From Micractinium sp. NFX-FRZ (taxonomy: Eukaryota; Chlorophyta; Trebouxiophyceae; Chlorellales; Chlorellaceae), in contig JAPTJF010000026.1 of assembly GCA_029339195.1 (NCBI GenBank), positions 1 through 64,000 of the forward strand: a stretch of 64,000 nt of DNA, in the 5' to 3' direction. A program made the position numbers and the translations under genes. Positions 10,226 to 44,746 of the stretch are shown one piece after another. Positions within the stretch are counted from its first letter, which is position 1. Each line of letters begins with the position of its first letter. The notes below the pieces were generated by a model. It saw only the letters and a list, made by a program, of their open reading frames with translations, ran no database searches and was not told the DNA's origin.

Positions 10226-10256
<31 letters not shown>

Positions 10257-11307: not shown

Positions 11308-11355
<48 letters not shown>

Positions 11356-11751
11356 GCCGCGCAGCCGGCGCCTGGGCGACCGGCGCCGGCACGCCCGGCG
11401 GCAGCAGCGCCTGCCCGCTGCTGCTGCGCCAGTGCTCCGTGCTCGTCACCGGCTCATACAGCAGCACCGGCTGCTGCGCCTGCTGCGCCTGGTGCTGCGT
11501 CTTGGAGCGACCGCGCTGCGAGGAGGAGGCGGACGAGTCGCCGTGCAGGTGGCGGTTGAGCAGCCCCATGTCGATGCTGGCGTGCCGTGCATGCTGTGCA
11601 TGCTGTGCATGCTGTGCTGCTGCCGCCACGGCATGCGCCTCCTGCGGCTCCTCATACTGCTCAACACAGGCGGGGCGGGCGGGTGTGTGGGGAGAGGCAA
11701 GTGGGGAGCGGGTCGGCCTGCTGGGAGCAGCTGCTCAGCGGCGGCTGATTC

Positions 11752-11791
<40 letters not shown>

Positions 11792-15039: not shown

Positions 15040-16454
15040 ATGAGCCGCGCGTGCACGCTGAGCGCTGATGCGCTCTTTACAGTGCTTTTGCACGCCGCCA
15101 AGCACCCCACCAGCTCTGTGAACGGCCTGCTGCTGGGCACCGCGGGCCCAGAGGCAGGCAGCGGCGGGGCGGCTGTGGAGGTGACGCAGGCGGTGCCCGT
15201 CTGCCACAGCTTTGTCACGGTCACGCCCGTGGTGGAGGCGGCAATGGTGCAGGTGTGAAGGGTGTTGTCCTTGGAAGCTTGTGGAAGCAATCAACTCAGC
15301 CTGGGCAGCATCTGGACAGCTGGCCGGCCTGCCGCTGCTGTGCTGGCCGCTGCTGTGCTGGCTCAGCGCCGCCCCTGTTCACGCAGCTGCTCCCTCTAAT
15401 CGCCCCTTCATCTTGCGCCCCCCGCCTGCCCTGCCATGCGCAGGTGGTGCAGTACGTGAAGGAGCAACAGAAGGCGCGGCCCGGGCTGCGGCTGGTGGGG
15501 TACTACCAGTGCAACGAGCGGCTGGCGGATGGGGAGCTGGGGGCGGGGCGGCGCGTGGCCGACAGGGTGGAGGCCGCATGCCCAGACGCTGTGGCGCTGG
15601 TGGTGAGCCCCTGACCGCCTGCTTCTGCAAGCTTGTTTAGCGACCTGCTCCCAGCTGGAGATCTGCTCCCAGCTGGTAGTGAGGGCTATGGCTCCAGCTG
15701 GAGATCTGCTCCCAGCTGGTGGCGCTGCTTGCAGCGGTGCCTGGTTGGCAGCTGAGTCAGCGCCGTGCCTGGGCCCCACCAGAGCCTGTGTGCTGCGAGC
15801 TGCCCTGGCCCGCCCTTGGCCCATCTCATCCCATCCCATCCCGCCTCTCCGTGCCTCGTTCTGTGCACCCGTGGCTCAGCCGACAGCCGCGTCGTGGCGG
15901 GCATTGCGCTCCACTCCCCTGCATCATCCCACAGCGGACACGCCCCGTCTGTCCCCCGCCTCTTCCCACAGCTGGACGGCCCCTCGCTGGAGGCGGCACT
16001 CAAGGGACCGGCAGAGTCGGAGCAACACGTGATGCACCTGTACTGCAAGGACGGCTCGCGCGGCTGGGTCAAGGTGGCAGCGGGCGGCAAGGGCGGGCTG
16101 CGGTGCCCCACCAAGGGCGTGGCCGCGCAGCTGGCGCAGGTGCGGGGGCTGGGATGGTGTTTTGGCGGGGGGGGAGCCGGGCATTGAATGGAGCTTCCCT
16201 CCTGTGTCCTGCCTTTCCACCCTCTGTGGCGGGAAATGGTTACGGGCTGCCAGCAGCAGCTGCACCACTTGCTCGCCCACGCCTGCCTTGCTGCCTGCTT
16301 GCCCGCCCAGCTGCCGTCCTGTGCCCCGCCTGTCCCCCCTCCTGCGCAGTATGCGGGTGAGGGGCGCCACCAGCAGCTGCATGACTTTGAGGAGCACCTG
16401 GACGACATGTCAGCCGACTGGCTCAACCCCGGGCTGCTGGCAGGCCCAGCGTGA
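15040..16454 (+). CDS. EMC8: ER membrane protein complex subunit 8/9, 4 exons
   Basis: Exons are 15040-15252, 15444-15602, 15972-16139 and 16350-16454 (214 residues, close to the usual EMC8/9 length). EMC8/9 is a cytosolic MPN-fold subunit of the EMC, which inserts tail-anchored and multipass proteins into the ER membrane. The N-terminus (LFTVLLHAAKHPTSSVNGLL) is the family signature. It is followed by PVCHSFVTVTPVVEAAMVQV, the LRLVGYYQCNERL strand-helix, and a C-terminal HDFEEHLDDMSADWLNP segment typical of the family. The zinc-binding JAMM motif is absent, as in other EMC8/9 proteins. The start is the ATG directly before the conserved MPN strand. A single EMC8/9 gene rather than an EMC8-EMC9 pair is usual outside vertebrates. 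Confidence 0.92.
15645..15722. repeat. Tandem repeat in EMC8 intron 2
   Basis: CTGCTCCCAGCTGG occurs three times (about 15645, 15663 and 15706) with related spacers. The repeat lies wholly within the intron. Confidence 0.8.
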
Positions 16455-17086: not shown

Positions 17087-20000
17087 TCACAGATCCGTGG
17101 CCATGGGGTAGCTGCCCAGCACCCGCAGGAAGGGGGCTATCTCCTGCACGGGTGGAGGGAGGGATGGGAGGGAGGGAGGGAGGGGAGGCCAGGGGGCAGC
17201 AGGCTGGATGAGCCGGGGCCGCGATTGGCAGCAGGGAAGGAGGGAGGCAGAAGAGCAGCCGCCTGCAAGCCAGGCAGCGTCAGGCAGCGTGCCAGGCAGC
17301 CTGCACGGCAGCATTGACGCAGCCAGAAGCAGGCAGCCAGAGGCAGGCAGCCCAGCCTGCAGCAAGCGGAGCCCCAGCCTGTCCATGGCCCTGCCCACCC
17401 ACCTGCAGGTGCCGCAGCGCGTTTTGCGACTGCGGGTCCGCCAGGCTGCCGATGAAGTCGATGTAGAAGAGGTAGTTGAAGGAGCGCTGCTGGCCGGAGC
17501 CGCCCGCGTCTGCACAGCAGGCACAGCACACACACAGAGGACGAGGGGGGGTTTGTCGTTGATGGGGAACAGGAGGCTGAAGGCGCGCCTGCATATGCGG
17601 GCCGCCGGCATATGGCCATACGTATCGTATGCAGGAGAACTGAAAGGTAATGGGGGAACATCCCAGCTAGTTCCAGGCAAGCGTTTGGCAGTTTGTAAGA
17701 AAGCACCCCAAGCGCCACGGCACCCGCCGCCCTCCGCTGTGGCCCCCCCCACCCCCGCCCCCCCCGCTCTGTCCCACCTGACAGCAGGCGAGAGGGTTTG
17801 CCCTCAGAGGCCTGCCCGACCCGCAGCCCCCAGCACCCTGCCTACCTGCCTACAGCCTTCCTGGCTGCACGACCCTCTCCCTGCCGCACCGCACCCAACC
17901 CACCCACCCACCCACCCGACAGTATGAGCGGGTTGGCCCTCATGGGCCTGCTCTCAATCTTGGTCATGTCGATGTCCCGCAGGGCAAACACGCTGAGCGC
18001 CTTGAACAGCATGCCGGGGCCCTGCCATGCACAGAATGGACGGGCGGGGGGAGGGGCAAGGCGACAATGATGAGCATGCATGAACAGCATGCCAGGGCGA
18101 TGCCAGGGCGCACGCCTTGGGGAGAGGCGCTTTGAAGGCTGAGCAGCACGCCCGTGCGAACCTGCGGGAAAGTGGGGGCGCAGCAGCACAGCGCAGCGCA
18201 GCGCACAGCATACACAGCACAGCACAACACAGCGCGCACCTCTTGCAGGCTGAACACGATGGAGGTCTTGTAGGGCACGGCGCTGGTGAGGGCATCGGTG
18301 GCCACCAGCGGGTCGCGGGACAGCACCACAAAGCGGGTCACGTTGTCCTTCATGTCCTGCGGGGGGGCGGGGGAGCGGGGATGGCAGCTTGAAGATGTGG
18401 TCGGGATGTGGGGCGCCATGCCCAGCTCACAACAGAAACCTGCTTCACCACAGCGCCGCCCAAATATTCAACAACATACAAAAGAAAGCAAGATATGCAG
18501 TACAGTGGGAGGAGGCGGGACGCGCCTGGAGCGTTCGTCAGGCAGAAACCCACATCACAGAGCACCGCTTGGCACTTCAGCATCACACAATGAGGTGGAC
18601 AGAGAGAGCACAGGACGCGCCTGGATGTCTTCGTCCAGCACGTCTAGGCCGTACAGCTCCCCGGCCCGCCGCGACGCCACCGCCGCCGCGTCCCGCCAGT
18701 TGTTCTCGGCAATCATCTTGGCAGCGCCCGCTGCAGGGCGAGCAGGCAGGGGAAGAGGCGGGACTGGTCAGGAGTGAAGGCATGGGTGGGTGGGTGGGTG
18801 CATGTGTGTGTGAGTGAGAGATGGGCAGCCGGCACGTCGTTACAAACACCTTGGCCCTGGCCGCGACACCACCCCCCGGCCTGCACCCAGGTCATACCTC
18901 CCCTCCCACCCCGCCCCTGCGTACGACCCTCCCTCCACCCCACCCCCAGCACCCCACCCTGCCACCGCCCACCCACCGGTGTCGTCCACCGCCTCGCGCA
19001 CCACCCCCGGCATGCGCCGCGTGTAGCTGTCCGTCTGCGCCAGCGCCTGCGGGTGGCTCAGCACCCGCTTGATCTCGCCCTTCTCCACGCCCGGCAGCGC
19101 CAGCAGGCAGTGGCGCACGTCAACTGCGGGGGCAGCGCGGGGTGTGCAGGGCAGGCAGGGGCGGTCAAGTGGGGTGGGATGGAGGCAGCGCCAGCAGCAG
19201 CCAGTGGCAGTCGTCGTGGCTGGAGCACGGAGGAGGCGGGGCAAGGCAAGCTATGTTGCCCCTGCCTGCTAGCTCCCCACAGCTGACCAGCCTCTCTGCA
19301 CACAAAGGGCATGCGCTTGCATGCCCAAGCTGCCACCCAGCCCACCCCCAGCCGCATGCCCACCTGACACCTCCCCCACGATGTGCAGGCGGTACCGCAG
19401 CAGCAGGTCGTACACAGCGTGGATGCTGCCGCCCAGCGAGTTCTCCACAGGCAGAGTGGCACGCTCGGCCATCCACTGTAGGTGGGGGAAACGGTGGTTA
19501 GGGGACGGAGAGGGGAGGCGGTGACACGGCTGTGCCAGGAGGAGCGAGGCGCATGAATGGGGGGAGCAGCGAGCGGCAGGGCCTTAAGGGTTGGCTGGAC
19601 GCAGGCTGCGCAGAGGTGCTCCTGTCCAACCACCTTTGCCTATCCACACATACATCACGCCACCCGCCGCACCACCCCTGCCCACTGGTCCCAAAGCCGC
19701 AAAGCCCGCGTCGCCCGTGCACCGCTCACTGTCCTCAGCATGCCCACCCTCGCGCTGCTGCATCCCACCCCCCAAATCCCATCTGGCTCAGCGCCTGGAG
19801 TATCACCCTGCCGTCACACCCGCCTGCCACACCATCTCCTTCCATCACACACCACATGCCGGCCCCCCAAGGCAGGGGGTGGCGCAGTAGAGGCAGGAGA
19901 GGGCACCTGTCCCCCAGGAGATCTGTCCCCCAGGAGAGGGCACCTGTGCCCCAGGCCCCACCTGGCTGAGCGCCTGGAAGGCCGTCTCAAACTGCTCGCA

Positions 20001-21040: not shown

Positions 21041-24000
21041 ATGATGATGTCGTCTGCATTTATGCATCACAAGCTGGCGGTGACGGCCAGACAGCCCAGA
21101 AGGGCTTCCGCTTTGAGAGCTGGCCGCGCGGTGGCAGCTCGTGCCGGCCCGTTGGCAGGCCCAGGGCGCCCGGCGCTGCCCAGAAAGGCGCAGCTTGGCG
21201 CTCACACACGCCAGAGGTGGGTACGCGGAGGGTGCAGCAGCTGGCGGACGAGGGGACTGTTGGCGGTGCCACTGGCGGTGCCGCTGCTGCCAGCACTCTC
21301 TGTGCTGCGTCCCCCTGATCGCCACCCGTTGCCACTGCTGCCTGCCTACCCCTGCAGGCTGACGGTGTGCAAGGGGGGCAGCAAGGAGGGCGAGGCAAGT
21401 GCCGGCAACGGCGCTCACTCGGCGGACAGCAACGTGAGGACGGGATATCGTTCCTGCTTGGCTGTGGTGTGGATTTGCAGGCAGCGCCCCTCTCTTGCCC
21501 ATATTGTAGACAGGCTGGGCGTGGCAAAAATGGCCGATCGTTTGCTCCTGAGGCATATCAACCTGCGGTACCGCCACCGCGGCTGCCTGCTGCCAGGGAC
21601 GTGCGTTAGCGGCACCCGCCGCCGCCCCACCCTCCTGCCTTGCATGCGCCAGCTGTGCGCCCGTCCCAAGAGAGGAATGCCACCAAGCACTCAACTGCCG
21701 CCCCGCCCCGCCCCCCATCCCTCGCTGCTCGCCACCTGCAGGGCGCCAACGGCAGCGCCTCTGCCGCCTCCGTGCTGCCTGAGGGTCTGAATGATGAGGT
21801 GTCTGACGAGGAGGTGGAGAACAACCCGGAGCTGCACCCGCTCAAGGAGGCGCTGCAGCGGGCGCGGCGGCGTCTGGAGGAGGCCACCGGCATTCGGTGG
21901 GTGGGTGGTGCCGAGATGTGACACTGTGCACGTTGTTTTAGATTTTCTTTTTGTTTCTGAAAATCATGCTGCGGTGCTGGGGGACGGGTGAGGCGGCGCC
22001 CTGGAGGCGGCCACCGGCATACGGTGGGTGTGCTGCCAAGTCTTGTTCTTTTTCACGTGTCCAACCGACTTCTTGAGCACCTTGCTGGGCCCGCTGTGGG
22101 GCAGGGGAGGCTGTGGGGCAGGGGAGGTGCCCGGTGTAGGCCACCGGCCTTCGGCCCATGCTTGTTTGTCCCCTTGCGTGCCTAAGTCTTGTGTGTGCTC
22201 GTGTCCCAGCTCTACACATTGGGTTGGGGCATGGGAGCTTCACCTGGAGCAGGCCTCAAAATTTAGAGCACCCCTGCTCGCTTGTGTGCTTGATACTGTA
22301 TCCTTGTGTTTGTGGCTCTCTGACAATTGGACTGGGGTTTGGGAGCTGCTGCCAGCGGTTGTGGCGACGCCGTGAGTCCCTACTGCCACTGCTTGGTGCC
22401 TGCTTGCTCCTTTCCTTCGTTTCCCAGAAGGCGGTGCATCTGGCCGCAAATGCCGCAGGGCCTGCTTCCGCCCGCCCCCACCCCACTCCCTGCCGGCCGC
22501 TCGCCCTTGCAGCAGGGCGCTTGACGCACAGGCCCAACAGCCGTCCTCATTCCCCTCCTTCCACAACCCCACCCTGCCCTCCCTCCTGCTTCCCCCCCTT
22601 TACAAACCTGCAGCGAGGCGCTGGAGGCTGAGGCCCAAAAGGTGGCACAGCTGGCGGTGAATGCTGAGGGGTCTGTGAGCAAGGCGCGGCGCAAGCTGGA
22701 CGAGGCGCAGTCGGAGCTGGAGGCCGCCCGGGCGCAGCAGGCCAAGGCGGCTGTGGCGGTGGAGGAGATCCAGGGGCGCATGGACGTGGCGGCGGAGGTG
22801 GCGGCGGCGGCGGATGCCGTGGCTGCCGAGGCGCGGGGTGCGTGGGTGGTTGGGCGGGATGTGTTGGGAGGTTGGGGGGTGGGGTGGGGCACGCTGGAAC
22901 GCACCCAGCGCCAACAGGGCGCACCGCTGCTGTGCCTGCTGGGCTGCCACTTCCAGTGCCCAGAGGGCACCGGCTGCCTGACCCACTCCGCCTTGCCGGC
23001 AAGCCTGCTCCCCTTGCCCCTCTGGCCCGTCCACTCCCTCTCGATCGGCAGCACGTTGTTGCCACTCCCTGCTGCAGCGGCACAGGAGCAGGCGGGAGCA
23101 GTGAGCGGCGGCGAGGCGGGCGTCGAGGACGTGGCCGAGTCGGTGGCCCGCTCGGCGGCGGCTGCCGACACCACTCTGGAGGACGACCTGTGGGAGAAGA
23201 GCCAGCAGCTGCAGGAGACGCTGGCCAGGATTGCAGAGGCGGAGCAAAAGGTGGGTGGGGCCGGGGTGGGGGTGCCGCTATGTGCGCTGGGGGGCAAGTG
23301 GCCTGCGGGAGAAGAGACAGCAATGCTTGCCAGATTGCCGAGGCGCCCTTCCCCCTTGCCCCCGCTCCTGCCCGGCCTGCTGATAAGGCACACCTCCTCG
23401 CCCATTGTAATCCAAGCTGGTTCCTCCCCCTGTTCCGCACCTCCCTGTCTTCTGCCTGCCCGTCTTGTTGCTGATTCTCTACCCTGCCAGGCGAGCTGAT
23501 AGAGGCAAAGCTGATAGAGGCAGGACCACCTACCTCCATTCCCTGCGCCCCACTGCCTCCTCCCCCCCGCAGATCTCCACGCTGCAAGCCAAGGTTGCGG
23601 GTGCCGAGGATGCGTACAAGCAGGCGGACGGCATCGCCCAGGCGGCCATGGAGGCGGCGGAGGAGGCGGTGAGGGACGAGATGGAGACGATTGCGGGTGC
23701 GTGGGTGGTCGGGGGGCGGGGGGGAGGGCCAGCTCTTTGAAGGTCGGCTGGACACGTGTGGCTCTGGGACCGGGGTGGGCGGCTGGGATGGATGGGATAA
23801 CACGCTCAACGGGTGCAGCAGATTACACAGCAGGCGCCTCCCTGCCATGCGTCTCCCTGCCCGCCCCTCACCATCCGTGCCTTCCCCCCGCACACCTGGG
23901 TGCTGAGGAGGCTGACAACACGCTTTGCCGGCCAGCGTCCCCTCTTTCTGCGCCAACATCCTGAACATGTTACCCGGGCAGCGCCCCTTTCCCAGTGGTG

Positions 24001-27000
24001 TCGCTGGTGTGTTGCCCAGCAGCGGTTCACTGCGGACGGTGCTCCGCCCAGCAGCAATCACCCCAACCTCAACTCGCCAAATCCCACCAAGAACCGCGAT
24101 GCCGCCCCTGCTGTGCGCAAGGCGACCGGGGACGCGCTGCCCAGGGGGCCGCCTCTCCCCTTCCCGCCTCAACTGACCAAGTACTGAATACATCCACTGC
24201 GCTGCCCCCCACCCTTTGCAGTGTTCAAGGAGACTGAGAACGCTCTGCTCAAGGCGATTGAGGACCTGCGCTACCTGGACGACACATCCGGTGGGTGGCG
24301 GGAGGGGTGGGCGCGTGTGCCTCTGGTAGTCTAGCAAAGGGGTCGTGGGTGGGTGCGGTGGGTAGTTTCACAAAAAATTGTGGGGGTGAATGGGTGCGAC
24401 GTGTGTGGCTGCCGGCGGTGATATTGATGGGCAATAGTGCTGCGCTGCGCCGTTTTTGCATGCGGATGGCGGGTGTGATGGTTGTGGGGAGCCTGCCTTG
24501 CGTGCGTCGCCTGGGCCCCCCTGGACCTCTCCTCCCCCGCCTGCCTACCCCCCTGCACCCCCCGTCCCCCACCCTGCCCCTTCCCTCCACTGAATTCCTC
24601 CCCCACCCGCACCCGCAGGCCGCCAGGAGTCGGAGTGGGACCGCAAGGTGGTGCTCAAGTCGGTGGACTCGGAGGACCAGGGGGACGCAGCGCCCGCATC
24701 CTCGGGAGACGCCTCACGCAGCTCGGCGTCGCTCAAGGCGAGCCGGGGGGGGGGGGTGATGATGGGAGGGCAGGGCCAGGGGCAAGTAAGGAGGGCTGCA
24801 GTTGTGCCTTACACTCGACTCGTGTGTTCAGCTGGAATGGTGGGCCCGACTGACTCATCTGCAACGCCCATCATCGTTTGCTTGTTCTGTTCTTGCTTGT
24901 CCTTGTTCTCTCCCGCGCACAGTCTGTGGCGGGCCGGCCTTGTGCAAGGAGGCGAAGCAGGTGGCTCGCATGTCGCACGTCACAGCCAGCATCTCATTTG
25001 TCCACCCCTGTGCCTCCCCTCCCCCGCAGTCTGTGGACCTGCGGCCGTATGAGGAGGTGAAGCAGGAGGCGCAGCGGCTGGCGGCGCAGCAGAAGGGCTG
25101 GCGCGGCCTGCTGGCCACGGCGCAGCAGCACAAGGCGCTGCTGCTGGGCGGGCTGGTGCTGGCGGCGGCGGGGGGATACCTTGCGTACCAGCAGGGCGTG
25201 TTTGCCGCCGTGGCGGCGCAGCTGCAGGCGGCCGCCGCGGCCGCCGCGCGCCTGTGGGCCGTGGCTGCCAACCTCGTCAGGTGCGGGGGCTGGGGGCAAT
25301 GGGTGGCTGGGGGCGCAATGCCGGTGGGGTGCAGGCGCAGCACGCCAGCTTGAAGGCCTTGCTCGTCTCCCTCCTTACCCTTGATCCCCGCACTGTTGCA
25401 CCCCCCTGCAGCCAGCTGCCCTGGCCCCACATCCACATCCACGAGAGCGAGAAGGGGCTGCTGGAGACGATCTGGCTGCTGCTGGCCTCCGTGGTGTCGG
25501 TGCCCCTCATCTGCAAGATCCCGGGCGGCTCGCCCGTGCTGGGCTTCCTGGTGAGGCGGCGGGCACCCGGCGCTGCCTGGGGGGTGGGGGCAAGACTGGG
25601 GCCTTTGCGGGGGGAGGTGAAGGGGAGGCTGGCTCACTTGTTCTGGGCTTCCCGGTGAGGCGGCCCCAATGCTGCCTGGGGAGTGGGGGGCAGGAGCCCT
25701 TGGGCGGGGACGGGGGGGTGTAAGGGGAGGCTGGCTGACCCCACCCCCCTTTTGGGGGCTTCCTGTGAAGCCTGGCGGTGAGTTGGCACCCCTGTCATGT
25801 CGTCCAACAGACCGCAGTTGCACGCGTGACCCCATTTGCATGCCTCCCCTGTGCCCCCCAACCCGTGGTGACCACCGCAAACTTTGCATTCCTGCCCTCC
25901 CCCCCGCAGGCGGGCGGCGCCTTGATTGGCCCCTACGCCCTGGGCATCATCCAGGACGTGGAGAGCATCCGCCACCTGGCGGAGCTGGGGGTCGTCTTCC
26001 TCCTCTTCAACATCGGGCTGGAGCTCAGCTTTGACCGGCTGCGCAGCATGGGCAAGTTTGTGTTTGGCATGGGCACGCTGCAGGTGAGGGCGGGGGGCGG
26101 GAGGGGAGTGCGTGGTGGGAGGAAAGGGACGCTGGCTTGCCTGTAGTCCTATGTGCCTGCGCTCCCCTGCCCCCAACTCACCCACGGCCTCCTCACCCCC
26201 TCTCTGCCTACCCCCCCCGCCCAGGTGGTCATCACCCTGGCCGCCGTGGCCTACACGGGCATGGCGCTGACGGGCGGCGCGCTGGGCGGTCCGGGCGCCA
26301 TCATCCTGGGCGGAGGGCTGGCGCTGTCCACCACCGCAGTGGGCATGCAGGTGGGTCTGCGGTGGGGCAGGGGGAGGGCGGATGTGGGTTCGTCTGTGGA
26401 TGACAGTAAAGGGTCGCACCGCAGCCCCTGGTGAGCTGCCCTGTTCACCCGCTCCCCTCCCCTCCCCTCCCCTCCTCCCCCGCCGCCACAGGTGCTGGCC
26501 GACCGCGGCGAGACGGGCTCCAAGTTTGGGCGCGCCACCTTCAGCGTGCTGCTGCTGCAGGACCTGGCGGTGGTGGTGCTGCTCATGCTCATCCCGCTGC
26601 TGGCACCCTCGGCTGACGGCCAAGGTGAGCAGGGCGCTGCGGGCCTGCTGCAACTGGGCTGCTGTTGTGATGGTTGCGGCACGCGCAGGGTGCGCCAGGC
26701 CAGCGGGGAGGATGTGTGTGTGGGAGGGGATGCCAGCCCCACTGCTGCCACACCCTGCCCTGACGGCACGGCAGGTGTGTGGCGGGGCGGCACGGGGGGC
26801 GTGCCGTGAAAGCAAATGCTGGTTGGTTGCAGCCTGTGCCTTCCCCGCCACACCTTGGCGCCCCCGCTTGCGGCCACCCCAGCAATGCTTACGCCCCACC
26901 CCAGCAAACCCCGCCCTTTAGTGCCCTCGCCTCCAATCCTCCCTTCTCTATGCAGCCGCGGGCATCGCCTCTATTGCCAAGGCCATTGGCGCCGCCGCTG

Positions 27001-30000
27001 TCAAGGCTGTGGTGACGATGGTGGGCATCACGGTGGCGGGGCGCACGCTGCTGCGCCCGCTGTACAAGCGTGTGGCGGGTGAGGCGGAAGGGGGGCGCAA
27101 TTTGCAGGAGGGAGGGGAGGTGGCCAGGGGGCCAGCGGTCGAGAGGGTTGGAAGGGGAGCAGGAAACGGGGCGCATGGTGCTGCGCCCGCTGCTGTACAG
27201 GCGCGTGGCGGGTGAGGCGGGGGCGGGGCGGTGGGCGGTGTGCATGAGGGAGGGGGCCCCGGGAAGGGGGGCAGAGGGTAAGGGGGGGCAGGCGATGGGG
27301 CTCGCCCTGCCGCGCCCGGCTGTGTAAGCGGCGTGCACCAGTGCTGCCCACGGTACAGCACACCACGGCACGACGCCATCGTGCCTCACCCCTGCCTCTG
27401 CCCCTCCTGCAGAGACCAGCACCAACCGCCAGCACATGTATTGCCCTTGCCCGCCCAGTGCCCTCTCTCCCCTTTCCCCCCCACCCCTCCACCCGTCACC
27501 CCCTTCGTCCCACCCCCTTTCCTCTCCCCCTTACCTCCCCCCTACCTGCAGAGACCAACGACACCACTGTGTTCAACGCGCTCACCCTGCTGGTGGTGCT
27601 GGGCACCTCGCTCATCACACAGATTGCGGGGCTCAGCCTGGCGCTGGGCGCTTTCCTGGCGGGCCTGCTGCTGGCGGAGACAGAGTACCACCTGCAGGTG
27701 GGCTTTTCAGCTGACAAGCAATCCTTGGCTGTGCTCAAGTGTTACAAGGGAACTGGGGGGCAGTAGGAGCAGTCCTTGTGGGGGCCGCTGCTGGCGGAGA
27801 CGGCATTGCCGTGGCCCCTCAACGCTCATGTCGCCCGGCTCACTCCGGACCAGCTCCCCTGGTGCTGCAGGTTGAGTCCGACATTGGCCCCTACAAGGGC
27901 CTCCTCATGGGCCTCTTCTTCATGACAGGTGCTCGCGGCCGGGGGCAGGGGTGCAGATCTTTAAAAAGAGAGAGAGAAAAAAAGGTGTCAGCCATGCTGT
28001 GTGTGATGTGCGGGGTGCGGCATGCCAGGCAAGCTGAGTCGGCCGCCCCTCGACCTTGACCTGCTTGGAGCACCCAAGCTCTCCTATCTGCCTGCCCCCC
28101 TCTCCAATGCTCCTTGACGCTCCTCTTCTTTTACCAAAAAACAGGCTGTCCCGTCGCCCGTCGCCACACAGCTCAAGTTGCTTCCCCTCCCCCTCCCTCC
28201 CTCCCCACCGTGCCGCAGTGGGCATGGAGATCAGCGTGCCCCTGTTCTTTGCCAAGCTGAAGACCATCCTGGGCGCGATGACGATGCTCATCGTGGGCAA
28301 GGTGGCCGTCATGGCGGCGGTGGGGCAGGCCTTTGGCCTCACACTGGTGCAGAGCGCGCGCAGGTGAGGGGGTGGGTTGAGTGGGGTGCATGGGTGCTCG
28401 GCATGGGGAGTGTGCAGGGTAGGGCAGGCGCCTGGGCTCACGCTGGTGCAGAGCGCGCGTGAGTGGGAGGGGTTGGGTTGAGTGGGGTGCACGGGTGGGG
28501 CTGGAGCTGTGTGGTGCTGGGAAGCGGACTGTGCAGGGTGGGGCAGATGCAGGGCCCCGCGTGCCGTTCCGCCTGCACTCTACCCCTGGCTCGCTCACTG
28601 CCTCCTCCGAACGGCCGTGCCTGTCATCCATACACACAATCCGCAGCCGCATGGGGCCAGCATGATGCACTCCAGCATGCCCTGCCCCTACCCATACTGC
28701 CCTCTGCCATTGCTCGCCCATTGCCATTTCGCAATGTGCGCTGTGCACTCCAGCATGCTCTGTCCGACCTAACGCTGACTTCTACGCTCTCCACATGTCA
28801 TGCTACCCCCACCACCCGCAGCGGCCTGCTGCTGGCCCCCGGCGGCGAGTTTGCCTTTGTGCTGTTTGGAGAGGCGGTGGCGCGGGGCATCATGGGGGCG
28901 GCGCTCGCCAAGGAGCTCTACCTCGTGGTGGCCCTCAGGTGGGGAGGTGCCTCGGGTGGTGCTTCTAGCAGGAGGGGGGGGCTGGGGCAGGGAAATGGGA
29001 TAAGGTTCTCTCTACCTCGTGGTGGTAGTCAGGTGAGGCGGGCTGTGCCCTAAAGAGGTGTGTGGAAAAAAAGGCGTGGTGCGAGAAGGCGGGACGGGCC
29101 TGCAGCACAGCGCCTGGCACCCCGCCGTTTTCCACCCCGCGTGCACACGCTCGCCCCCCACCCCACACATGCCTCCCCGCCTCCCTCTCTCCTCCCCCTC
29201 CCCTCCCTTCCTGCAGCATGGCCCTCACCCCCTTCCTGGCCCAGTTTGGCGGCAAGCTGGGGCAGATGCTGGAGAAGAGCGACATGAAGGCGCTCCAGGT
29301 GGGTGGGTGGGGGGTGGGGTAGGAGGGGTTTACACCCTGCTGTGTGTGTGGGCGTTTGACATGGAGTGTTGGCGCAAGAGGGAGGGGAGCAAGAGGATGG
29401 GAGGGGAGATGCTGCAGAAGAGCGGCATGAAGGCGGTGCAGGTGGGGGGAGGTAGGAGGGGTATACACCGTGCTGTGTGTTTGAGCGCTTGACATGGGGT
29501 GTGCGCATAAGCAGATGGGAGGGGAGGTGCTGGGGAAGAGCGGCATGAAGGCTGGGGGACACGAGCGAGTGAGGGGTGGGGCACGCGGACCCAGCCCACG
29601 ATGGCCCTCTGTCCCCTCATCCTCGACTGCCAAGCCCGACATGCCCCTTCCCCTCTTCCTACCCACACACCGCTGCCCTGCTCAACCCACCGCCTCCCTC
29701 CCTTCCCTCCCTGCGCCCCCGCCCCGCAGCCCAAGGAGGGCGAGATGGAGGGGATGCGGGGCCACGTCATCATCTGCGGGTTTGGCCGCGTGGGCGAGCT
29801 GATTGGGCAGATGCTGAGCGAGCGCCTCATCCCGTTTGTCGCCCTCGACGTCTCCGCCTCGCGCGTCCAGGTCAGCGCACGCCACACGCAGCATGCCATC
29901 CTGGCGGGCACACGCCACCCTGGCAGCTTCCTGCATCCTGTTCTTTCTTGCATGCGTCCTTGGGGCACATTGCACTACACGTGCGTTGCTTGCCTATGCC

Positions 30001-31692
30001 CAGGCACCCTCCCCCACGCTGCAGCACGCTGTGCTTTTGCCCGTGCCCCTTTGCACGCGTCATCAATCACACTGTGCCAAGCTTCGCCAACGTTCCATGC
30101 CAAGCATGCCCCTTGACGCTGCGCCCATCCTGCCTCCATGCTGTGCAGGAGGGCAAGAAGCTGGACCTGCCCGTCTACTTTGGCGACGCCGGCTCACCCG
30201 CGGTGCTGCACGCCGTGGGCGCTGAGAGCGCCGCGTGCGCGGTGAGTGCCTCCCCCGCCCTGCCCCTGCGCACACCTGCCACGGGTGCAAGCCCCCACAC
30301 CCACGGGCGCCCGGGCTTTGCCCTGCCGCCAGTGCACCCACACCCCTGCCTTGCGCTCCCTCCCACCTCCTCACCTGGCCACCTAACCACACTTACACCC
30401 GTCACGATACTGTGTGGTGATGTCAACATGTCCTCCCTTGCCCCCCCCTCCCCCATGGCGCCAGGTCATCACTCTGGACACGGCGGGCGCCAACTACCGC
30501 AGCGTGTGGGCCATGCACAAGCACTTCCCCCACATCAAGACCTTTGTGCGCGCGTTTGACATTGAGAACGGTGCGTGCGTGGGGTGGGGCGGGCGGCTGC
30601 ATGGCTGAGTGTGGGGTGGCTGGTTGAGCAGGGCATGCAGGTGGGGCGCCGGTAGCTGAAGCTGCGTGGGAAGGGAAGCGTTGTGGGGAGCTCCGCCCGC
30701 CCTTGCCTCCCTGCTCCCATGTGGGGTGCCACCTCGCCTTCACCCCACGGTGTCCCCTCCCCGCCCCCAGACCCCCAAACAGAGCAAACAAATCACTGCA
30801 ACGTCCCCGCCCCTCGCCTCACTTTCCCCTCCCTCCCCTAACCCCCATCTGTGCAGGCATCATGCTTGAGAAGGCGGGGGCCACCGCCGTGGTGCCCGAG
30901 ATCCTGGAGCCCTCGCTGCAGCTGGCGGCGGCGGTGCTCAGCCAGGTGGGTGCTGGGGTGTGTGGGGGTAAAGGAGGGTGTGTATGCCCCCATCAACTTC
31001 TTGGGGTCGGGTTTCATGAAGGCAGAGCGCCGCCGGCACTGCAGCAGCATGCCGCTGTTTTCAAACATGTTGGAGCTGCAATCATCCACCATGGAGTGGC
31101 CCATCTGCTCGCTCTTGCCTCGTCGCCCCCATCACCCCCCTCCCTGCCCCCTTCCCTCCTGCCCCCGCAGCTCAACATGCCCGAGGACGAGGTGGCCGAG
31201 ACGATCCGCTCCTTCCGCAAGACACACCTGAGCGAGCTGCAGATGCTGGCGCAGATGAGGTGGGCAGGGGGGGGACGTGTGCGTGGGTACAAGTGGGCGA
31301 GGGTGGGTGGAGGTGGTGGGGGGTGGAAAGTGCAGTTGGGGGCAGACTTTGGTGGCTGGGTGGCAGCGTGCGGCAGAAAGGCGGCCTGCTGTTGCGCCCC
31401 GGGTTAGATCGAGGGTCCTGATGCCACGCTGTGCTGCTAGCAGCTGCTGCCGATCCCGCGCCTCTGGACCGCCCGCCTGGCCTGCTGCCCGCCGCTGCCC
31501 TGCCCCGTGCAGTATGTAACCGCCGTGCCTCTCTGCCTCTGCCCGCCCTTCCCTGCCTGCAGCGGCAGCAGCCTGGGCTACGGCCCGCCTCAGAAGGCGG
31601 AGCGGGAGCGGGAGGCGATGGATGCTTCCGAGGGAGATGAGGGGGCACCCGGCGGCGAGGGCTCCGCGGCCGCCATGCCCGCAGCCGCCTGA
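21041..31692 (+). CDS. KEA1/2: Chloroplast K+/H+ antiporter of the KEA1/2 type (CPA2), 25 exons
   Basis: Exons: 21041-21216, 21358-21433, 21742-21896, 22614-22837, 23078-23250, 23573-23696, 24222-24290, 24619-24785, 25030-25280, 25412-25550, 25910-26083, 26225-26350, 26492-26624, 26956-27078, 27552-27697, 27871-27928, 28219-28363, 28822-28938, 29217-29298, 29730-29870, 30149-30241, 30465-30570, 30857-30945, 31171-31259 and 31563-31692 (1101 residues). Plant KEA1/2 exchange K+ for H+ across the inner chloroplast envelope. The order fits: an Arg-rich transit peptide, a long Glu/Ala coiled coil (about 80-340), then CPA2 membrane segments with GALIGPYALGII, LSTTAVGMQVLADRGE, LLLQDLAVVVLL and GAFLAGLLLAETEY. 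An RCK/KTN Rossmann domain starting GHVIICGFGRVGE (about 896) follows. Many introns contain copies of adjacent exon edges. Confidence 0.93.
21862..22157 (+). repeat. Tandem copies of KEA exon 3 end
   Basis: The exon 3 end and donor (CCACCGGCATTCGGTGGGTG at 21884) recur at 22011 (CCACCGGCATACGGTGGGTG). A more degraded copy is at 22141. Offsets are 127 and 130 bp. Confidence 0.85.
23191..23347 (+). repeat. Copy of KEA exon 5 end in its intron
   Basis: Exon 5 sequence from 23191 (TGGGAGAAGAGCCAGCAG...) recurs at 23303-23347 (TGCGGGAGAAGAGACAGCAA...) with an internal deletion. The copy has no usable donor. Confidence 0.7.
24920..25078 (+). repeat. Copy of KEA exon 9 start in the upstream intron
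   Basis: The acceptor and exon start at 25027 (CAGTCTGTGG..., ending GGAGGTGAAGCAGG) are matched at 24920-24972 (CAGTCTGTGG..., ending GGAGGCGAAGCAGG). The offset is 107 bp. Confidence 0.75.
25539..25780 (+). repeat. 105-bp tandem repeat spanning KEA exon 10 end
   Basis: Units begin near 25539, 25644 and 25750. Each starts with the exon 10 end (GGGCTTCCTGGTGAGGCGG at 25541, GGGCTTCCCGGTGAGGCGG at 25645, a degraded form at 25756). The first two continue through matching intron sequence (GCTGCCTGGGG..., GGGGAGGCTGGCT...). Confidence 0.9.
27041..27334 (+). repeat. Tandem copies of KEA exon 14 end
   Basis: The exon 14 end (27041-27087) recurs at 27171-27220 with its donor context GTGGCGGGTGAGGCGG intact. 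A degraded third copy lies at 27301-27334. The offset is 130 bp, and the copied donor would shift the frame. Confidence 0.88.
27408..27572 (+). repeat. Copy of KEA exon 15 acceptor
   Basis: CTGCAGAGACCAGCACCAAC at 27408 precedes the real acceptor CTGCAGAGACCAACGACACC at 27546. The copy carries a complete AG acceptor. Confidence 0.75.
27655..27806 (+). repeat. Copy of a KEA exon 15 segment in the next intron
   Basis: GGGCCTGCTGCTGGCGGAGA (27661, exon 15) is matched by GGGGCCGCTGCTGGCGGAGA (27781). The offset is 120 bp. Confidence 0.75.
28323..28545 (+). repeat. Tandem copies of KEA exon 17 end
   Basis: The exon 17 end (28323-28368) recurs at 28422-28466 including CTGGTGCAGAGCGCGC and a GTGAGT donor. 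Flanking intron sequence such as GTTGAGTGGGGTGCA is also duplicated, and part of a third unit lies near 28499-28545. The offset is about 99 bp. Confidence 0.88.
28913..29040 (+). repeat. Copy of KEA exon 18 end
   Basis: CTCTACCTCGTGGTGGCCCT at 28916 recurs at 29010 as CTCTACCTCGTGGTGGTAGT, followed by CAGGTGAGG. The offset is 94 bp, so use of the second donor would shift the frame. Confidence 0.85.
29263..29560 (+). repeat. Three tandem copies of KEA exon 19 end
   Basis: GAAGAGCGACATGAAGGCGC (exon) is followed by GAAGAGCGGCATGAAGGCGG in the copy at 29405-29448 and GAAGAGCGGCATGAAGGCTG in the copy at 29523-29558. The intervening intron sequence (TACACC..TGCTGTGTGT) is duplicated too. Confidence 0.9.
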
Positions 31693-32714: not shown

Positions 32715-35700
32715 CTAGGCGTCAGCGGCGTCCTCGTGCAGCCGCTGCAGCGCCTCGGCTGCGCTGGGCCTGAGGGCGGGGTCGGGCGAGAGGCAGGCGT
32801 GGATCAACGCAAGCGCCGCCTGCATGCGACGGGGGGGAGGGACACAGGAAGCGGTGAGGGGCAGGGAGTCACAGGCAGGCGTGGATCGGCGCCGGTGCCG
32901 CCTGCATGCGATGGGGAGGAGGGGCGAGGAAGCGGTGGGGGAGGGGCGAGGCAGCGGTGGGGGACATAGCTGTGGGGGGATGTAGGCAAGGGCCCGGTGC
33001 CGCCTATGGCACTGCAGTCCGAGTGCTGTGCAGGGGGCAAGGCAGGCAGGCAGGCAGGTTGTGTGCAAAGCGGCCCATCAGCAGCACACCGGCATCGTGT
33101 TCCCCGACGGTGGCTGGCAACACCATTCCGCCCCCGGCCACCGTCCTCGCCCAACGACGTGCACCCTGCCCTGCCCTGCCAGCACCCCGCACCTGGGAGC
33201 ACTGTGTGGGCACATGGGGCAGGCGCCAGCCGTCCCGCTTGACGACCAGCACCTGCGTCGTCAGCTCAATCAGCAGCACGCCAAAGCTGCACAGGCGCGC
33301 ACGCGTGTGTTTGAAGCAGCCGCAGCGTCAGTTGGCCAGCATAGCGTGGGATGCAACAAAGTGTGCCGGGCGGGGGCAAGGGGTCTGCGAGCTTCCCAAG
33401 CACCAGGCCCAAAGGGCACTCCATGCTCCACACTTTGCCAGAGCATCTGCCTCAAGCCTAGGACTCACGCATCCCCGCAATGCAGGAACCGAAGGGCAGA
33501 ACAATGCGGCCCACGGTCGGGACGCGTCCCCGAGGCAGGCACAGAAAGCAAAGCATGGGGGGCAAGCACTGCTGGCGTGGCGTGCCATGCTTGCCCCCTG
33601 CCCCCCCCCCCCCATGCTTGCCTGTACAGGTCAGCCGCCAGCGTGCAGCGTCCGCCCAGCAGCTGCTCGGGGGCGGCGTGTGTGTAGGTGCATCCCACCA
33701 CGGAGCGTGCCTGGCTGCCCACCGCCCTCGACATGCCCAGGTCGCTGATGCAGGCGCGCAGGTCTGCCGTCAGCAGCACGTTGCTGCAGGGGCGGAGGAG
33801 GGCCAGGTGGGGACGTGGGGCGGGGCAGCTGGGGCGGGGGCAGGTGGGGATGTGCGTCGGGGGAGCAGGAGCAGGGCTGGCCTAGCGCTGGTGCAACTCC
33901 GACAGCACAGGTGGTTTGTCCAACTCTTCATTTCAGAGCATTCAACCCCTCCAATATGAAGCTGGAGCCCTTCGGGGTGGCGCTCAGTGACGTTACTAGA
34001 ATAGGATTCCAAAGGGGGGGGTAGGCTGCAAGAGGGCGACTACCTTCCAGTCCTCTCAAGCAGCTAGCTTCCTCACAACCCTGCCTCTGCCCTGGCTCAC
34101 CTTGACTTGATGTCGTTGTGCTGCACGCCTGCCCGGGTGTGCAGGAAGTGCAGGCCTTGAGCCACATCCATCGCCACCTGGCGCCCCCTGCACAGCACGC
34201 AAAGCAGGGCCGGGCAGCGTGTCGAGCGAAAGACGCAGGTCGGCCACTGGCCGGCCTGGCAGCGCGGTGCTGCCGAAACCGTGCAAAGAGGCAGGGGTGT
34301 GGATCGGAGTAGCACATCGTGTCTCAGGAGCCACAGCTGCTGCTGCTGCTGCTGCTGCCCGCTACTGCTGCCCCCCAATGCCACCGCTGCTGGCGCACCC
34401 ACCCTGCTTGCCAGTGCAGCCGCTGCCGGGTGCCCGTCTGTTGCAGGGCGGTGCGCAGGTTGCCCCCCGGCATCAGCTCCATCACCATCACCAGCAGGCC
34501 ACCCTGCAGGGGGGCAGTTGGGTGCTCATGGTCTGGGTTAGTAGTTCACCAAAAGGTCGTTTTGGCAAGGGGAGAGAGGAGGTAGGTAGGGAAGGATTTC
34601 AGTTGCCTTGCAGGAGAGGTGCAAAGCATGTCAACAAGGAGACCGCCCCGAAGCACGACGCAGCAGAATGCAACACAGCACAGCACAGCACGGGCAGTGG
34701 CATCCGAGCTGCAGGCTGCATGCGGCGCCGCTTTGCCCGGCCCACCTTGACGGCCATCCCGTAGAGAGGCACGATGCGCTCGTGTGTGCTCCGGTGCAGC
34801 AGCGCCGCCTCGCACAGCCGCTGCAAGCTGCCCCCGGGGCGCAGCTCGACAACCTGCAGCGCATGGCAGAGCGGAGAGCAGCCTAACAACCAGTGGCAGA
34901 GCAGAGAGCAATATGCCTGGCTGCGCATGCCGTGGCCGCGAAGTCGTGCCTATGTGTGTGTGTGTGTGTGTGTGTGCGTTTCTGCCCCGCTATGCTGCAC
35001 ACCTGTCAAGACCACCACAGCAGCAGCCTGCCTCCCCAGCGTGCCGGCAGGCGTGCCAGCAACAGCAGCCCACCTTTGCCGCCACGTCAGAGCCGCCCAG
35101 CCTGCCCAGCATCACCACGCCGTGGCTCCCCTCCCCCAGCAGCACCGGCCGCCCGCCGTTGAACACAAACTGCACGGGAGCAGCGGGCAAGTGAAGTGCA
35201 GCTAAGGGCAAAGCACAGCTCGTATCAGTGGTGCGACCGAGCGGATGCATCACGCTGGCAGTGGTGCAGAGGGGGCACGCCATCCCATCCTTGCCAACAA
35301 CAGGTGGCGCACATGCAGGGAGGGCATGTGTGCAGGGAGGGCATGTGTGCAGGCAGGCAGGCAGGCAGGCAGGCGGGCAGTCACTCGCACGCAGGCATTG
35401 CGTGCAGGGCTGCCCCCCACCTCTAGCTGCCGCGACTGCATCTCAAGCGAGTGTGCCACCAAGTCCAGGCCCTGCTGGCTGCCTGGCAGCTGGCAGCCCT
35501 GCCTGAACCCTCTGACGGCTGGCTTGCCCACTCTCTCTGGCACCAGCGTGCCCTCTCCCTCTGCCTCCTCGGGGACCGCAGGCAGGGGGCCCAGCCGGTG
35601 CGGCAGCCCCAGCGGCAGCCCTGCCCCCGACAGCCGCGCCGCTCGCATGTCCCCGAGAGGCCACATGGCGCAGCCGCTGCCCACGCCGCCGCCCAGCTCA

Positions 35701-43300: not shown

Positions 43301-44746
43301 GGCAGGCAGGCGCGGGCGACGCAGGGAGCGGCGGGATGGCGGGCAGATTGCAGGTGACAGCAAGTCAGCCAAAGCACAGAACCCCACACCTTTCAATGAA
43401 GGCCAGCCTTCCAGCACCGCTGTCCTCCTGTCCCAGCTGCACCCCACCCCCCTCACCCAGTGCGTGTCCAGCTCCAGGGAGCGCACCCCCAGGTTGAGCT
43501 GGTCGGTCAGGCTCAGCAGCTGGTTGGCGGTGTTCAGGGGGGCGCCGCTGAAGTCGTGCAGCGCCCACTTGATGTACTTGAAGAAGCCTGGGGGCGGGTG
43601 GGTGGGTGGGTGGGTGGAAGGGTGGAAGGGTGGGGGCGGGAAGACAAATGAGCATTGTGTGTAGGGTAGACAGGCCTCACCCCATGTGCTTGCTGGCAGT
43701 CACATGAAGACGCAGGAGGGCGGGTGGTGGAGTCGTGAATTTGGGCAGCAAAGCAAGCGCTGAGCAGCAGCTGCTGCGGGCAGGGGCACTCGACCCCTCA
43801 ATTGTAATCCACTCAGGCGCCTGCCAGCACCCATGAACCGCCACTTTGCCACCCAGAAATAGCAGCAACTATCCAAACATGGGAAGATGAACCCCCGATC
43901 GAGACGCGGGACATCATGTTTAAAGCTTCCCCGTCGCACGCCGCATCCGTCCGCCAGCCACCTGCCCACCACACCACCCTGCCGCCACCTGGCAATTTTG
44001 AATAACGTAGAATACACTTTGCAAGGTAGGGAAAACACGAAAGCTTCCGGGCAGCAGCCTCACCCTGAAAGTACTCGTCCAGCACGCCGTATCCATCTGC
44101 CAGCGAGATGGCCGAGTTGTGCGTGCCCAGCAGGCTGGCGTAGCACAGCGGCAGCGTCTGCACCAGCCGCGTCTGCTGCCGGATGGCGTGCGCCAGCCAG
44201 GGGTCGACCGACACGCTGCCGCGTGCGCACACGTCCACGCACTGGTCCCCCTCGCACCTGCAGGCGGCGGGGGGTGCGGCGGCGGCAGCGGCAGCGGCGG
44301 CGGGCGAGGTGCAGGAGCTTCATGAAGGGTGTGGTTGTGCGTCTGCCCCTGTGAAAGGCCGAATCGGCTGCTCACCACTACTGATACTGGATGCCGCGAG
44401 CAGCAGCAGGGAGCAACTGCGTGCAGTCCCTACTGGTGGCCCACGCTACTCACCGCTGCACCACGGTGCAGTTCACGCCGGCAGGCACGCCGGTGCGGCG
44501 CAGCGCCTGCAGGCCGCCCACCGGCTGTGCGCGCCCGTCGCTACCGCCCTCTGGCCAGCAGATGTAGGGGAGCAGCTCCCGCTCAGCGGCAGTGAGGTTG
44601 AGGCCCGCCACTGGCACTGCCGAAGCGCAGCGCTGCTCCGGCAGTGGGCTGGCTGAGAAGAGGGGCTGTGGGGGCTCTGTCATTTCTGCACCAGCAATTG
44701 CCAGCGCCGAGGCCAGCGCCAGAGCCAGGAGGAGGAAGCGCGCCAT
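40329..44746 (-). CDS. PLC-like phosphodiesterase, secreted or membrane-anchored, 9 exons
   Basis: Exons (minus): 44746-44454, 44257-44064, 43587-43457, 43194-43000, 42712-42626, 42383-42273, 41877-41710, 41409-41281 and 41012-40329 (663 residues). A hydrophobic signal peptide (MARFLLLALALASALAIAGA) is followed by a Cys-containing segment and a TIM-barrel like the PI-PLC X domain. The barrel shows LLGTHNSAIS with the first catalytic His (about 143), VRSLELDTHW, LRIAHCGGLH with the second His (about 215), FVILYFDDQ and VLFVSGTDYGEEM. The C-terminus has a membrane segment (AAGAAAALALVVTALVAGRR) and then basic residues. The family hydrolyses phosphodiester bonds in phosphoinositides or related lipids. 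The substrate and the residues needed for calcium or product specificity cannot be assigned here. Several Cys pairs fit an extracellular or lumenal domain. Confidence 0.85.
41121..41244. repeat. Intron-only tandem duplication, 86-bp offset
   Basis: GCATGGAACCTGCCCTGCAC (41121) recurs at 41207 as GCATGGAACCTGCCCCGCAC, both followed by a CACCCCCTCC tract. It lies wholly within an intron of the PLC-like gene. Confidence 0.85.

What the first reader, a model, noticed from the sequence alone, without database searches (positions are those of the whole stretch)
21041..31692. Introns carry decayed tandem copies of the adjoining exon edge and splice site
Seen directly: at least nine of the 24 KEA introns contain one or two extra copies of the neighbouring exon end or start. 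Each copy is joined to intron sequence that is often copied as well. Offsets run from 94 to about 145 bp. Examples are 21884/22011/22141, 24920/25027, 25541/25645/25756, 27041/27171/27301, 27411/27550, 27661/27781, 28344/28443, 28916/29010 and 29263/29405/29523. The same pattern occurs in other genes here (7364, 18081, 19781, 32873, 49147, 62085). Inference: recurrent tandem duplication across exon-intron boundaries lengthens introns and creates decoy or alternative splice sites. The copies differ in age, so this looks like a continuing process. I do not know of a described system of this kind in chlorellalean algae.
Basis: partly seen in the sequence, partly recalled or inferred. Interest (0 to 1): 0.85.

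Follow-up and report, generated by a model that had tools for sequence, protein, structure and literature searches.

The report
Exon ends copied into neighbouring introns
In this green alga about one intron in five of those examined carries a decaying copy of the exon edge next to it, usually a short piece of exon about 110 letters away, which looks like the trace of frequent small duplications that survive only when the original splice site still wins.

Summary
I built the KEA gene by hand (25 exons, clean 1085-aa frame) and trained a gene finder on it. In 304 kb of this genome, 81 of 387 modelled introns (21%) hold a direct copy of their own exon edge at offsets 50-400. Controls at the same score are near zero: exon ends match their own intron in 25 of 307 cases, other introns in 6 of 11,680, inverted in 0 of 307. 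Edge-spanning repeats exceed random placement 2.5 to 4-fold.

Two rules stand out. The nearest offset is 80-130 nt in 59 of 86 edges, median 110. The copied exon part exceeds 50 nt in 10 of 90 events, against 42% in simulated random-breakpoint duplications. A 40-kb stretch scored with unchanged settings, expectations noted first, agreed.

The copies decay like non-coding DNA. Best reading: recurrent local tandem duplication plus a splicing filter sparing units with little exon and a full intron end. A direct test of the filter was not significant, and intron parts are more decayed than expected. No RNA or second genome was available.

The parts
21041..31692 (+). KEA-type K+ efflux antiporter gene, 25 exons and 24 introns, 1085 aa
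   Evidence: hand model with clean frame; 75-91% identity to Micractinium and Chlorella proteins, 61% to Picochlorum
22001..22030 (+). intron 3: copy of exon 3 end plus donor (original 21874-21903), offset 127; further, shorter copy at 22138-22154
22508..22540 (+). intron 3: copy of exon 4 start with its acceptor (original 22609-22641), offset 101; further copy at 22423-22464 of 22634-22675
23302..23322 (+). intron 5: copy of exon 5 segment 43-64 nt from the donor (original 23187-23207), offset 115
24109..24146 (+). intron 6: copy of exon 7 start (original 24217-24254), offset 108
24947..24965 (+). intron 8: copy of exon 9 start region (original 25052-25070), offset 105
25631..25664 (+). intron 10: copy of exon 10 end plus donor (original 25527-25560), offset 104
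27180..27230 (+). intron 14: copy of exon 14 end plus donor (original 27047-27097), offset 133
27781..27801 (+). intron 15: copy of exon 15 end region (original 27661-27681), offset 120
28418..28459 (+). intron 17: copy of exon 17 end (original 28319-28360), offset 99; the alignment runs on into the intron
29010..29035 (+). intron 18: copy of exon 18 end plus donor (original 28916-28941), offset 94
29400..29552 (+). intron 19: two copies of exon 19 end (original from 29260), offsets 143 and 261; second copy 29521-29552
7364..7401 (-). gene model 5230-13543, intron 15: copy of exon end plus donor (original 7454-7491), offset 90, 95% identical
7977..8003 (-). gene model 5230-13543, intron 13: copy of exon start region (original 7872-7898), offset 105
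16192..16270 (+). gene model 15040-16454, intron 3: acceptor-edge copy (original 16309-16387), offset 117
18081..18105 (-). gene model 17087-20672, intron 6: acceptor-edge copy (original 18003-18027), offset 78
19770..19799 (-). gene model 17087-20672, intron 2: donor-edge copy (original 19949-19978), offset 179
17790..17815 (-). gene model 17087-20672, intron 7: donor-side copy (original 17926-17951), offset 136
32871..32925 (-). gene model 32715-34171, intron 3: acceptor-edge copy (original 32789-32843), offset 82
43936..43967 (-). gene model 40329-44746, intron 2: donor-side copy (original 44082-44113), offset 146
48551..48592 (+). gene model 45164-49954, intron 6: acceptor-side copy (original 48674-48715), offset 123
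62078..62118 (+). probable acceptor-edge copy (original 62214-62254), offset 136, 93% identical; my gene model starts inside this exon, so it is not in the intron counts

Best explanation
Small tandem duplications arise often in this genome (shown: excess of direct repeats at short offsets). When one spans a splice site, the gene gains a second, decoy site. It survives only if the authentic site still wins (inferred). For an acceptor, the authentic site must keep its own branch point and pyrimidine tract, so the unit must carry about 60 nt or more of intron. For either edge, the decoy must carry too little exon (mostly under 50 nt) to be recognised as well as the real one. Survivors are therefore mostly units of about 80-130 nt with 20-50 nt of exon. 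The copy then decays as non-coding DNA inside a longer intron (supported: flat divergence over codon positions; copy-copy divergence about twice copy-original). Repeated rounds give two or three copies per intron.
For: Local excess at score 16 or more: 639 hits at offsets 20-600 against 31 on 581 control offsets. Edge placement: donor-spanning 40 against 10.1 expected, acceptor-spanning 23 against 9.3, same-intron 56 against 39.9, intergenic 33 against 77.5. Own-intron specificity at score 18 or more: 25 of 307 donor edges and 19 of 307 acceptor edges, against 6 of 11,680 for each control; exon segments 60-100 nt from the edge 0. Direct only (0 of 307 inverted for each edge), and next and previous intron 1 of 301 each. 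Intron part repeated at the same offset in 17 of 40 donor and 9 of 30 acceptor events at p 0.05 or less. Exon part over 50 nt in 10 of 90 events against 41.7% simulated; 12 of 101 with the added stretch. Branch-like CTRAC motifs peak 30-60 nt before the 3' end of 312 introns. A filter of exon part up to 50 nt and intron part of at least 60 nt, applied to the size spectrum of intron-internal repeats, predicts a median offset of 110 (IQR 95-123); observed 109.5 (IQR 97-130), KS p 0.07; without the filter KS p 2e-10. Codon positions 0.153, 0.200, 0.198. Exon-exon repeats are multiples of 3 in 85 of 90, edge copies in 27 of 91. Further stretch agrees: 11 of 47 introns.
Against: The filter thresholds (50 and 60 nt) were chosen after seeing the data, and the spectrum of intron-internal repeats of 50 nt or more rests on 28 introns. 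A direct test of the filter was not significant: splice-competent copies do not have clearly shorter exon parts (median 29 against 32 nt, p 0.17) nor longer intron parts (80 against 79.5, p 0.75). Intron parts are more decayed than a neutral tandem duplication allows: among donor copies with exon identity 0.9 or more, 1 of 7 shows intron homology next to the site, where simulation expects 0.95 or more; at identity 0.8-0.9 it is 5 of 12 for donors (expected 0.44-0.79) and 1 of 10 for acceptors (expected 0.23-0.60); below 0.8 there is no shortfall. The simulation of exon parts was donor-side only, with assumed ages and indel rates. No transcript evidence exists here for which site is used.
Confidence: 0.6

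Rival explanations
1. A duplication process tied to the exon-intron boundary itself, for example breakage or template switching at the G-rich intron start and C-rich intron end, makes units of about 105 nt. The narrow size is mutational, not selected.
For: Edge copies have a narrow offset range while intron-internal repeats are mostly short, median 43 nt. Introns run from 49% G at the donor to 48-50% C at the acceptor. The edge class is unevenly spread: 28 of 64 introns in the C1 stretch against 3 of 37 in C10 (chi-square over six stretches p 2e-5); between genes the unevenness is weaker (68 of 2000 shuffles reach it).
Against: A selection filter on ordinary repeats fits the size distribution without a special process. 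Donor and acceptor edges behave alike (offset KS p 0.06) although their base skews are opposite.
Confidence: 0.2
2. The copies are kept because they work, as decoy or alternative splice sites or as splicing enhancers that tune the authentic site.
For: 35 of 83 edge-adjacent copies still score like true splice sites. Exon-derived parts are better preserved than intron-derived parts of the same arrays (copy-copy 0.74 against 0.64, 20 pairs, p 0.0003; unrelated baseline 0.63-0.66).
Against: Copy GT and AG letters are not clearly better kept than their neighbours (G 0.90 and T 0.73 of GT, A 0.72 and G 0.83 of AG). Divergence is flat over codon positions, and offsets show no preference for multiples of three. 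Part of the exon-intron difference is ascertainment, since copies were found by exon similarity.
Confidence: 0.12
3. Detection effect only: duplications are uniform along genes, and edges stand out because one copy is frozen by coding selection.
For: Simulation gives edge duplications a 1.2 to 1.6-fold detection advantage over intron-internal ones. Intron parts seem to decay fast, so internal copies may be hard to see.
Against: Does not explain why exon parts stop near 50 nt, where detection should improve, nor the scarcity of 50-80 nt offsets at edges: 4 against 33 at 80-110, compared with 11 against 9 inside introns, Fisher p 0.001.
Confidence: 0.08

Closest known systems
Short tandem duplications and minisatellite-like repeats
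   Same: Direct local copies, one to three extra copies, different divergence
   Different: Narrow unit of about 80-130 nt and short exon part at splice-site edges; too diverged for a standard tandem-repeat finder (one search lists no row of period 94-145 in KEA)
[quoted passage not shown] potato RdRp case PMC4974935, abstract and passages seen)
   Same: Tandem duplication touching splice signals; the potato case copies an intron-exon boundary
   Different: Here the intron already exists and only grows; the copy lies inside the intron and the models show no new intron or exon
Human introns from tandem arrays (Zhuo et al. 2007, seen only as a reference-list entry in PMC3488318; content recalled, not read)
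   Same: Tandem arrays that include splice sites
   Different: There, as recalled, new alternatively spliced introns are proposed; here, copies inside existing introns
Introners / introner-like elements (search listings only)
   Same: Repeated sequence associated with many introns
   Different: Each copy matches its own exon edge; other introns match in 6 of 11,680 comparisons
Chlorella variabilis NC64A genome paper (Blanc et al. 2010, not held; I recall uncertainly that it may mention exon ends repeated in introns)
   Same: If the recollection is right, the same phenomenon in a relative
   Different: Could not be compared; the paper could not be opened

Membership tests
Tandem duplication (direct, local) | Copies in direct orientation, close by | tested here: met
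   inverted 0 of 307 at score 18 or more for each edge; next and previous intron 1 of 301 each
Tandem duplication (direct, local) | Whole unit repeated, intron part included | tested here: inconclusive
   intron part repeated in 17 of 40 donor and 9 of 30 acceptor events, but seen in only 1 of 7 of the best-preserved donor copies
Introners | Related sequence in many unrelated introns | tested here: not met
   exon-edge match to other introns 6 of 11,680 for each edge
[quoted passage not shown]
   copies are interior: donor-edge copies lie downstream of the modelled donor and acceptor-edge copies upstream of the modelled acceptor
[quoted passage not shown]
   no genomic DNA of relatives available
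Duplicated or mutually exclusive exons | Whole exon copied with both splice sites, coding constraint on the copy | tested here: not met
   no event with a segment holding a whole exon and both flanks; codon positions flat
Regulated alternative splice sites | Copy used in transcripts | not testable with these tools
   no RNA data; by eye, KEA proteins of relatives show no insertion at the junctions that carry copies, apart from length variation near the intron 8 junction (one of the six relatives is a partial protein)

The most novel reading that the evidence does not exclude
Splice sites in this lineage are natural hot spots for a size-limited duplication process, and the exon-derived copies are held more constant than the intron around them, so the intronic exon stubs may act on splice-site choice. 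Even if they do not, the survivors form a natural competition experiment that reads out how much exon (about 50 nt) and how much intron (about 60 nt) a splice site needs to win.
Probability: 0.2. Interest if true: 0.85.

Novelty: new variant of a known kind. Interest (0 to 1): 0.6.

Why it matters
About a fifth of the introns examined contain a partial copy of their own exon edge, typically about 110 nt away, yet the gene models, and in KEA the proteins of relatives, keep the original. That gives many natural pairs of possibly competing sites for measuring what the spliceosome of a green alga needs from exon and intron, may explain part of intron length variation, and warns gene annotators that copies can look like real exon edges.

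Tried and rejected
Paralogues or a second haplotype of KEA, which would show presence or absence of units, were not found in this assembly; of the many short C1 matches I looked at two query stretches and four loci, and both queries are simple repeats. Relatives' DNA was sought in viral contigs without result. A test that decoys with longer exon parts are more often dead was not significant. Introner, whole-exon duplication, coding alternative exon, inverted repeat and assembly-error readings were set aside. Literature: ten searches, several with capped lists, listed no paper whose title or abstract start describes this pattern; beyond listings I saw only passages of PMC3446292, PMC12636532, PMC4974935, PMC12902096, PMC3491373 and PMC3488318. 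Counts of edge events differ between calls (donor 40, 34, 36, 53, 55; acceptor 23, 22, 23, 37, 36) because of tolerance at the edge, whether events wholly inside the exon are included, and offset range. Rows dropped: introns of incomplete genes, introns under 100 nt or beside exons under 40 nt (307 of 340 kept). In one search exon ends far from the intron also gave 0 and 1 of 307 at score 18 or more.

Full report
What was checked. The finding names nine KEA introns with extra copies of an exon edge. I rebuilt the gene by hand: 25 exons, 24 introns, 3258 coding bases, one clean frame. The protein is a KEA-type K+ efflux antiporter, 75-91% identical to five Micractinium and Chlorella proteins and 61% to Picochlorum. 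Read by eye, the alignment shows no insertion in relatives at the junctions that carry copies, apart from length variation near the intron 8 junction; one relative is a partial protein and the N-terminal part aligns poorly. So the original edges appear to be the conserved ones. The organism is most likely Micractinium or a near relative (inference). Exon ends match their own intron better than any of the other 23 introns in 9 of 24 cases, exon starts in 3 of 24, exon middles in 0 and 2 of 24.

Beyond the gene. I fetched 200 kb from five other contigs and trained a hidden Markov gene finder, starting from KEA, on 264 kb. It gives 339 introns (median 268 nt), 340 with the KEA hand model put in, and recovers 23 of the 25 hand-made KEA exons. 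A scan for direct repeats, scored against local base composition, gave 639 hits at offsets 20-600 against 31 on an equal number of control offsets of 3-12 kb (score 16 or more). Of 260 repeat events at offsets 50-400, of which about 19 are expected by chance from that control, 40 had one copy spanning a donor and the other inside the following intron (10.1 expected under random placement) and 23 spanned an acceptor (9.3 expected). Repeats with both copies in one intron were 56 against 39.9, within one exon 63 against 22.8, and intergenic ones 33 against 77.5.

Own-intron test. Using only exon letters, so that splice consensus cannot help, the last 40 nt of an exon match the following intron at score 18 or more in 25 of 307 cases, and other introns of similar length in 6 of 11,680. 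Exon starts give 19 of 307 and 6 of 11,680. Exon segments 60-100 nt from the edge give 0 hits on both sides (211 and 220 exons long enough), and segments 40-80 nt away give 0 and 3 (252 and 258 long enough). Reverse complements of the edges give 0 of 307 for each edge. The copies are thus local, direct and edge-bound.

Two size rules. The nearest edge copy lies at a median of 115 nt for donors (45 introns) and 107 nt for acceptors (30 introns), 24 of those 30 between 80 and 120. Intron-internal repeats have a median nearest offset of 43 nt (48 introns). Restricted to offsets of 50 or more, edge and internal spectra still differ (KS p 0.0007). Edges have 4 events at 50-80 nt and 33 at 80-110, internal repeats 11 and 9. 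The exon part exceeds 50 nt in 10 of 90 events. Simulated donor-side tandem duplications with random breakpoints, mutated and passed through the same detector, give 41.7% (p 2e-10). In the hand-made KEA gene alone it exceeds 50 nt in 2 of 13 events (my count from the coordinates), so the gene finder does not create the rule.

Replication. After fetching a further 40 kb from contig C2 and before analysing it, I wrote down the expected results. With unchanged settings, 11 of 47 introns carried edge copies. From the printed rows, 8 of the 11 nearest offsets lay in 80-130 nt, and 2 of 12 events had an exon part over 50 nt (both 52). Edge matches at score 18 or more were 4 and 4 of 47 against 1 of 916 for other introns (donor edge), and no inverted match reached 16. 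Pooled: 81 of 387 introns, 101 events, 12 with exon part over 50 nt, 59 of 86 nearest offsets in 80-130 nt.

Fate of the copies. Differences between exon and copy are spread evenly over codon positions (0.153, 0.200, 0.198), and the copy's splice letters are not clearly better kept than their neighbours. Copy-copy identity of the exon part (0.74) fits twice the copy-original divergence (identity 0.86), in 20 pairs. Offsets of edge copies are multiples of three in 27 of 91, those of exon-exon repeats in 85 of 90. So the copies look like non-coding relics. 35 of 83 still score like real sites, and these are the less diverged ones (p 0.013). Introns with copies are longer (median 400 against 262 nt).

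How it most likely works. A tandem duplication over an acceptor leaves two acceptors. By general knowledge of acceptor choice (recalled, no call), the downstream, authentic one can be used only if the unit brought along its own branch point. In this genome branch-like motifs peak 30-60 nt before the intron end, which would set a lower limit of about 60 nt of intron. A copy with little exon should lose against a site with a whole exon behind it, which would set an upper limit on the exon part. Applying exon part up to 50 nt and intron part of at least 60 nt to the spectrum of ordinary intron repeats reproduces the observed offsets: predicted median 110, IQR 95-123; observed 109.5, IQR 97-130; KS p 0.07. 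The three weaker or absent filters tried fail (p from 3e-6 to 2e-19). The thresholds were set after the fact. A more direct test, that surviving decoys have shorter exon parts, was not significant (p 0.17).

What does not fit. If whole units were duplicated and then decayed neutrally, well preserved exon copies should sit next to recognisable intron copies. In 7 donor events with exon identity of 0.9 or more, only 1 shows intron homology beside the site, where simulation expects 0.95 or more; at 0.8-0.9 it is 5 of 12 donors and 1 of 10 acceptors, below expectation; below 0.8 there is no shortfall. In one C2 intron 29 of 29 exon letters are kept while the pyrimidine tract beside them has drifted. 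In another array the homologous intron part lies further on, after a second small duplication (read by eye), so part of the shortfall may come from where the test looked. Either the G-rich and C-rich intron ends turn over much faster than other sequence, or the exon-derived stubs are held back by selection or conversion. Copies were found by exon similarity, which accounts for part of the difference.

Uneven spread. The C1 stretch has 28 of 64 introns with copies, C10 3 of 37; over the six stretches the difference is strong (chi-square p 2e-5). By gene it is weaker (68 of 2000 shuffles reach the observed dispersion), though KEA has 10 of 24, two C1 genes 8 of 12 and 7 of 12, and two other genes 0 of 15 and 0 of 10. 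I have no explanation.

Known or new. Tandem duplication, duplicated splice sites and intron gain by tandem duplication are known kinds (PMC4974935, passages seen). A genome where a fifth of introns carry such copies under a narrow size rule was not recognisable in the listings of ten literature searches, several of them capped. I recall, without certainty, that the Chlorella variabilis NC64A genome paper may mention exon ends repeated in introns; it is not held. I therefore file this as a new variant of a known kind.

Noticed in passing
window and five further stretches, 340 introns in 264 kb: Introns have a steep base skew: 49% G in the first 20 nt falling to 27% by +160, and 48-50% C over the last 40 nt. 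Donor consensus reads CAG|GTG(A/G)G and the trained model has GC at about 7% of donors.
   Followed up: partly
introns of 150 nt or more (312): Branch-like CTRAC motifs are concentrated 30-60 nt before the 3' end.
   Followed up: partly
C1:48828-54949 (- strand) and C1:56165-59645 (+ strand) of G000: Two neighbouring, divergently oriented genes that look like flavodiiron proteins (flavodoxin plus flavin reductase; ODP-type beta-lactamase domains; the name flavodiiron is my inference) are among the genes richest in edge copies (8 of 12 and 4 of 9 introns).
   Followed up: partly
L006:7556-7663: An intron starts with a CTGTGCTGCG-type simple repeat directly at the donor; similar repeats occur on many contigs, in one of two loci looked at again directly after a modelled exon end (L025:1501).
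   Followed up: partly
264 kb, exons: Tandem repeats inside exons (offset 20-600) are almost always multiples of three (85 of 90), so short tandem duplications also enter coding sequence in frame.
   Followed up: no
window 24738: KEA intron 8 starts with GC instead of GT in the hand model.
   Followed up: no
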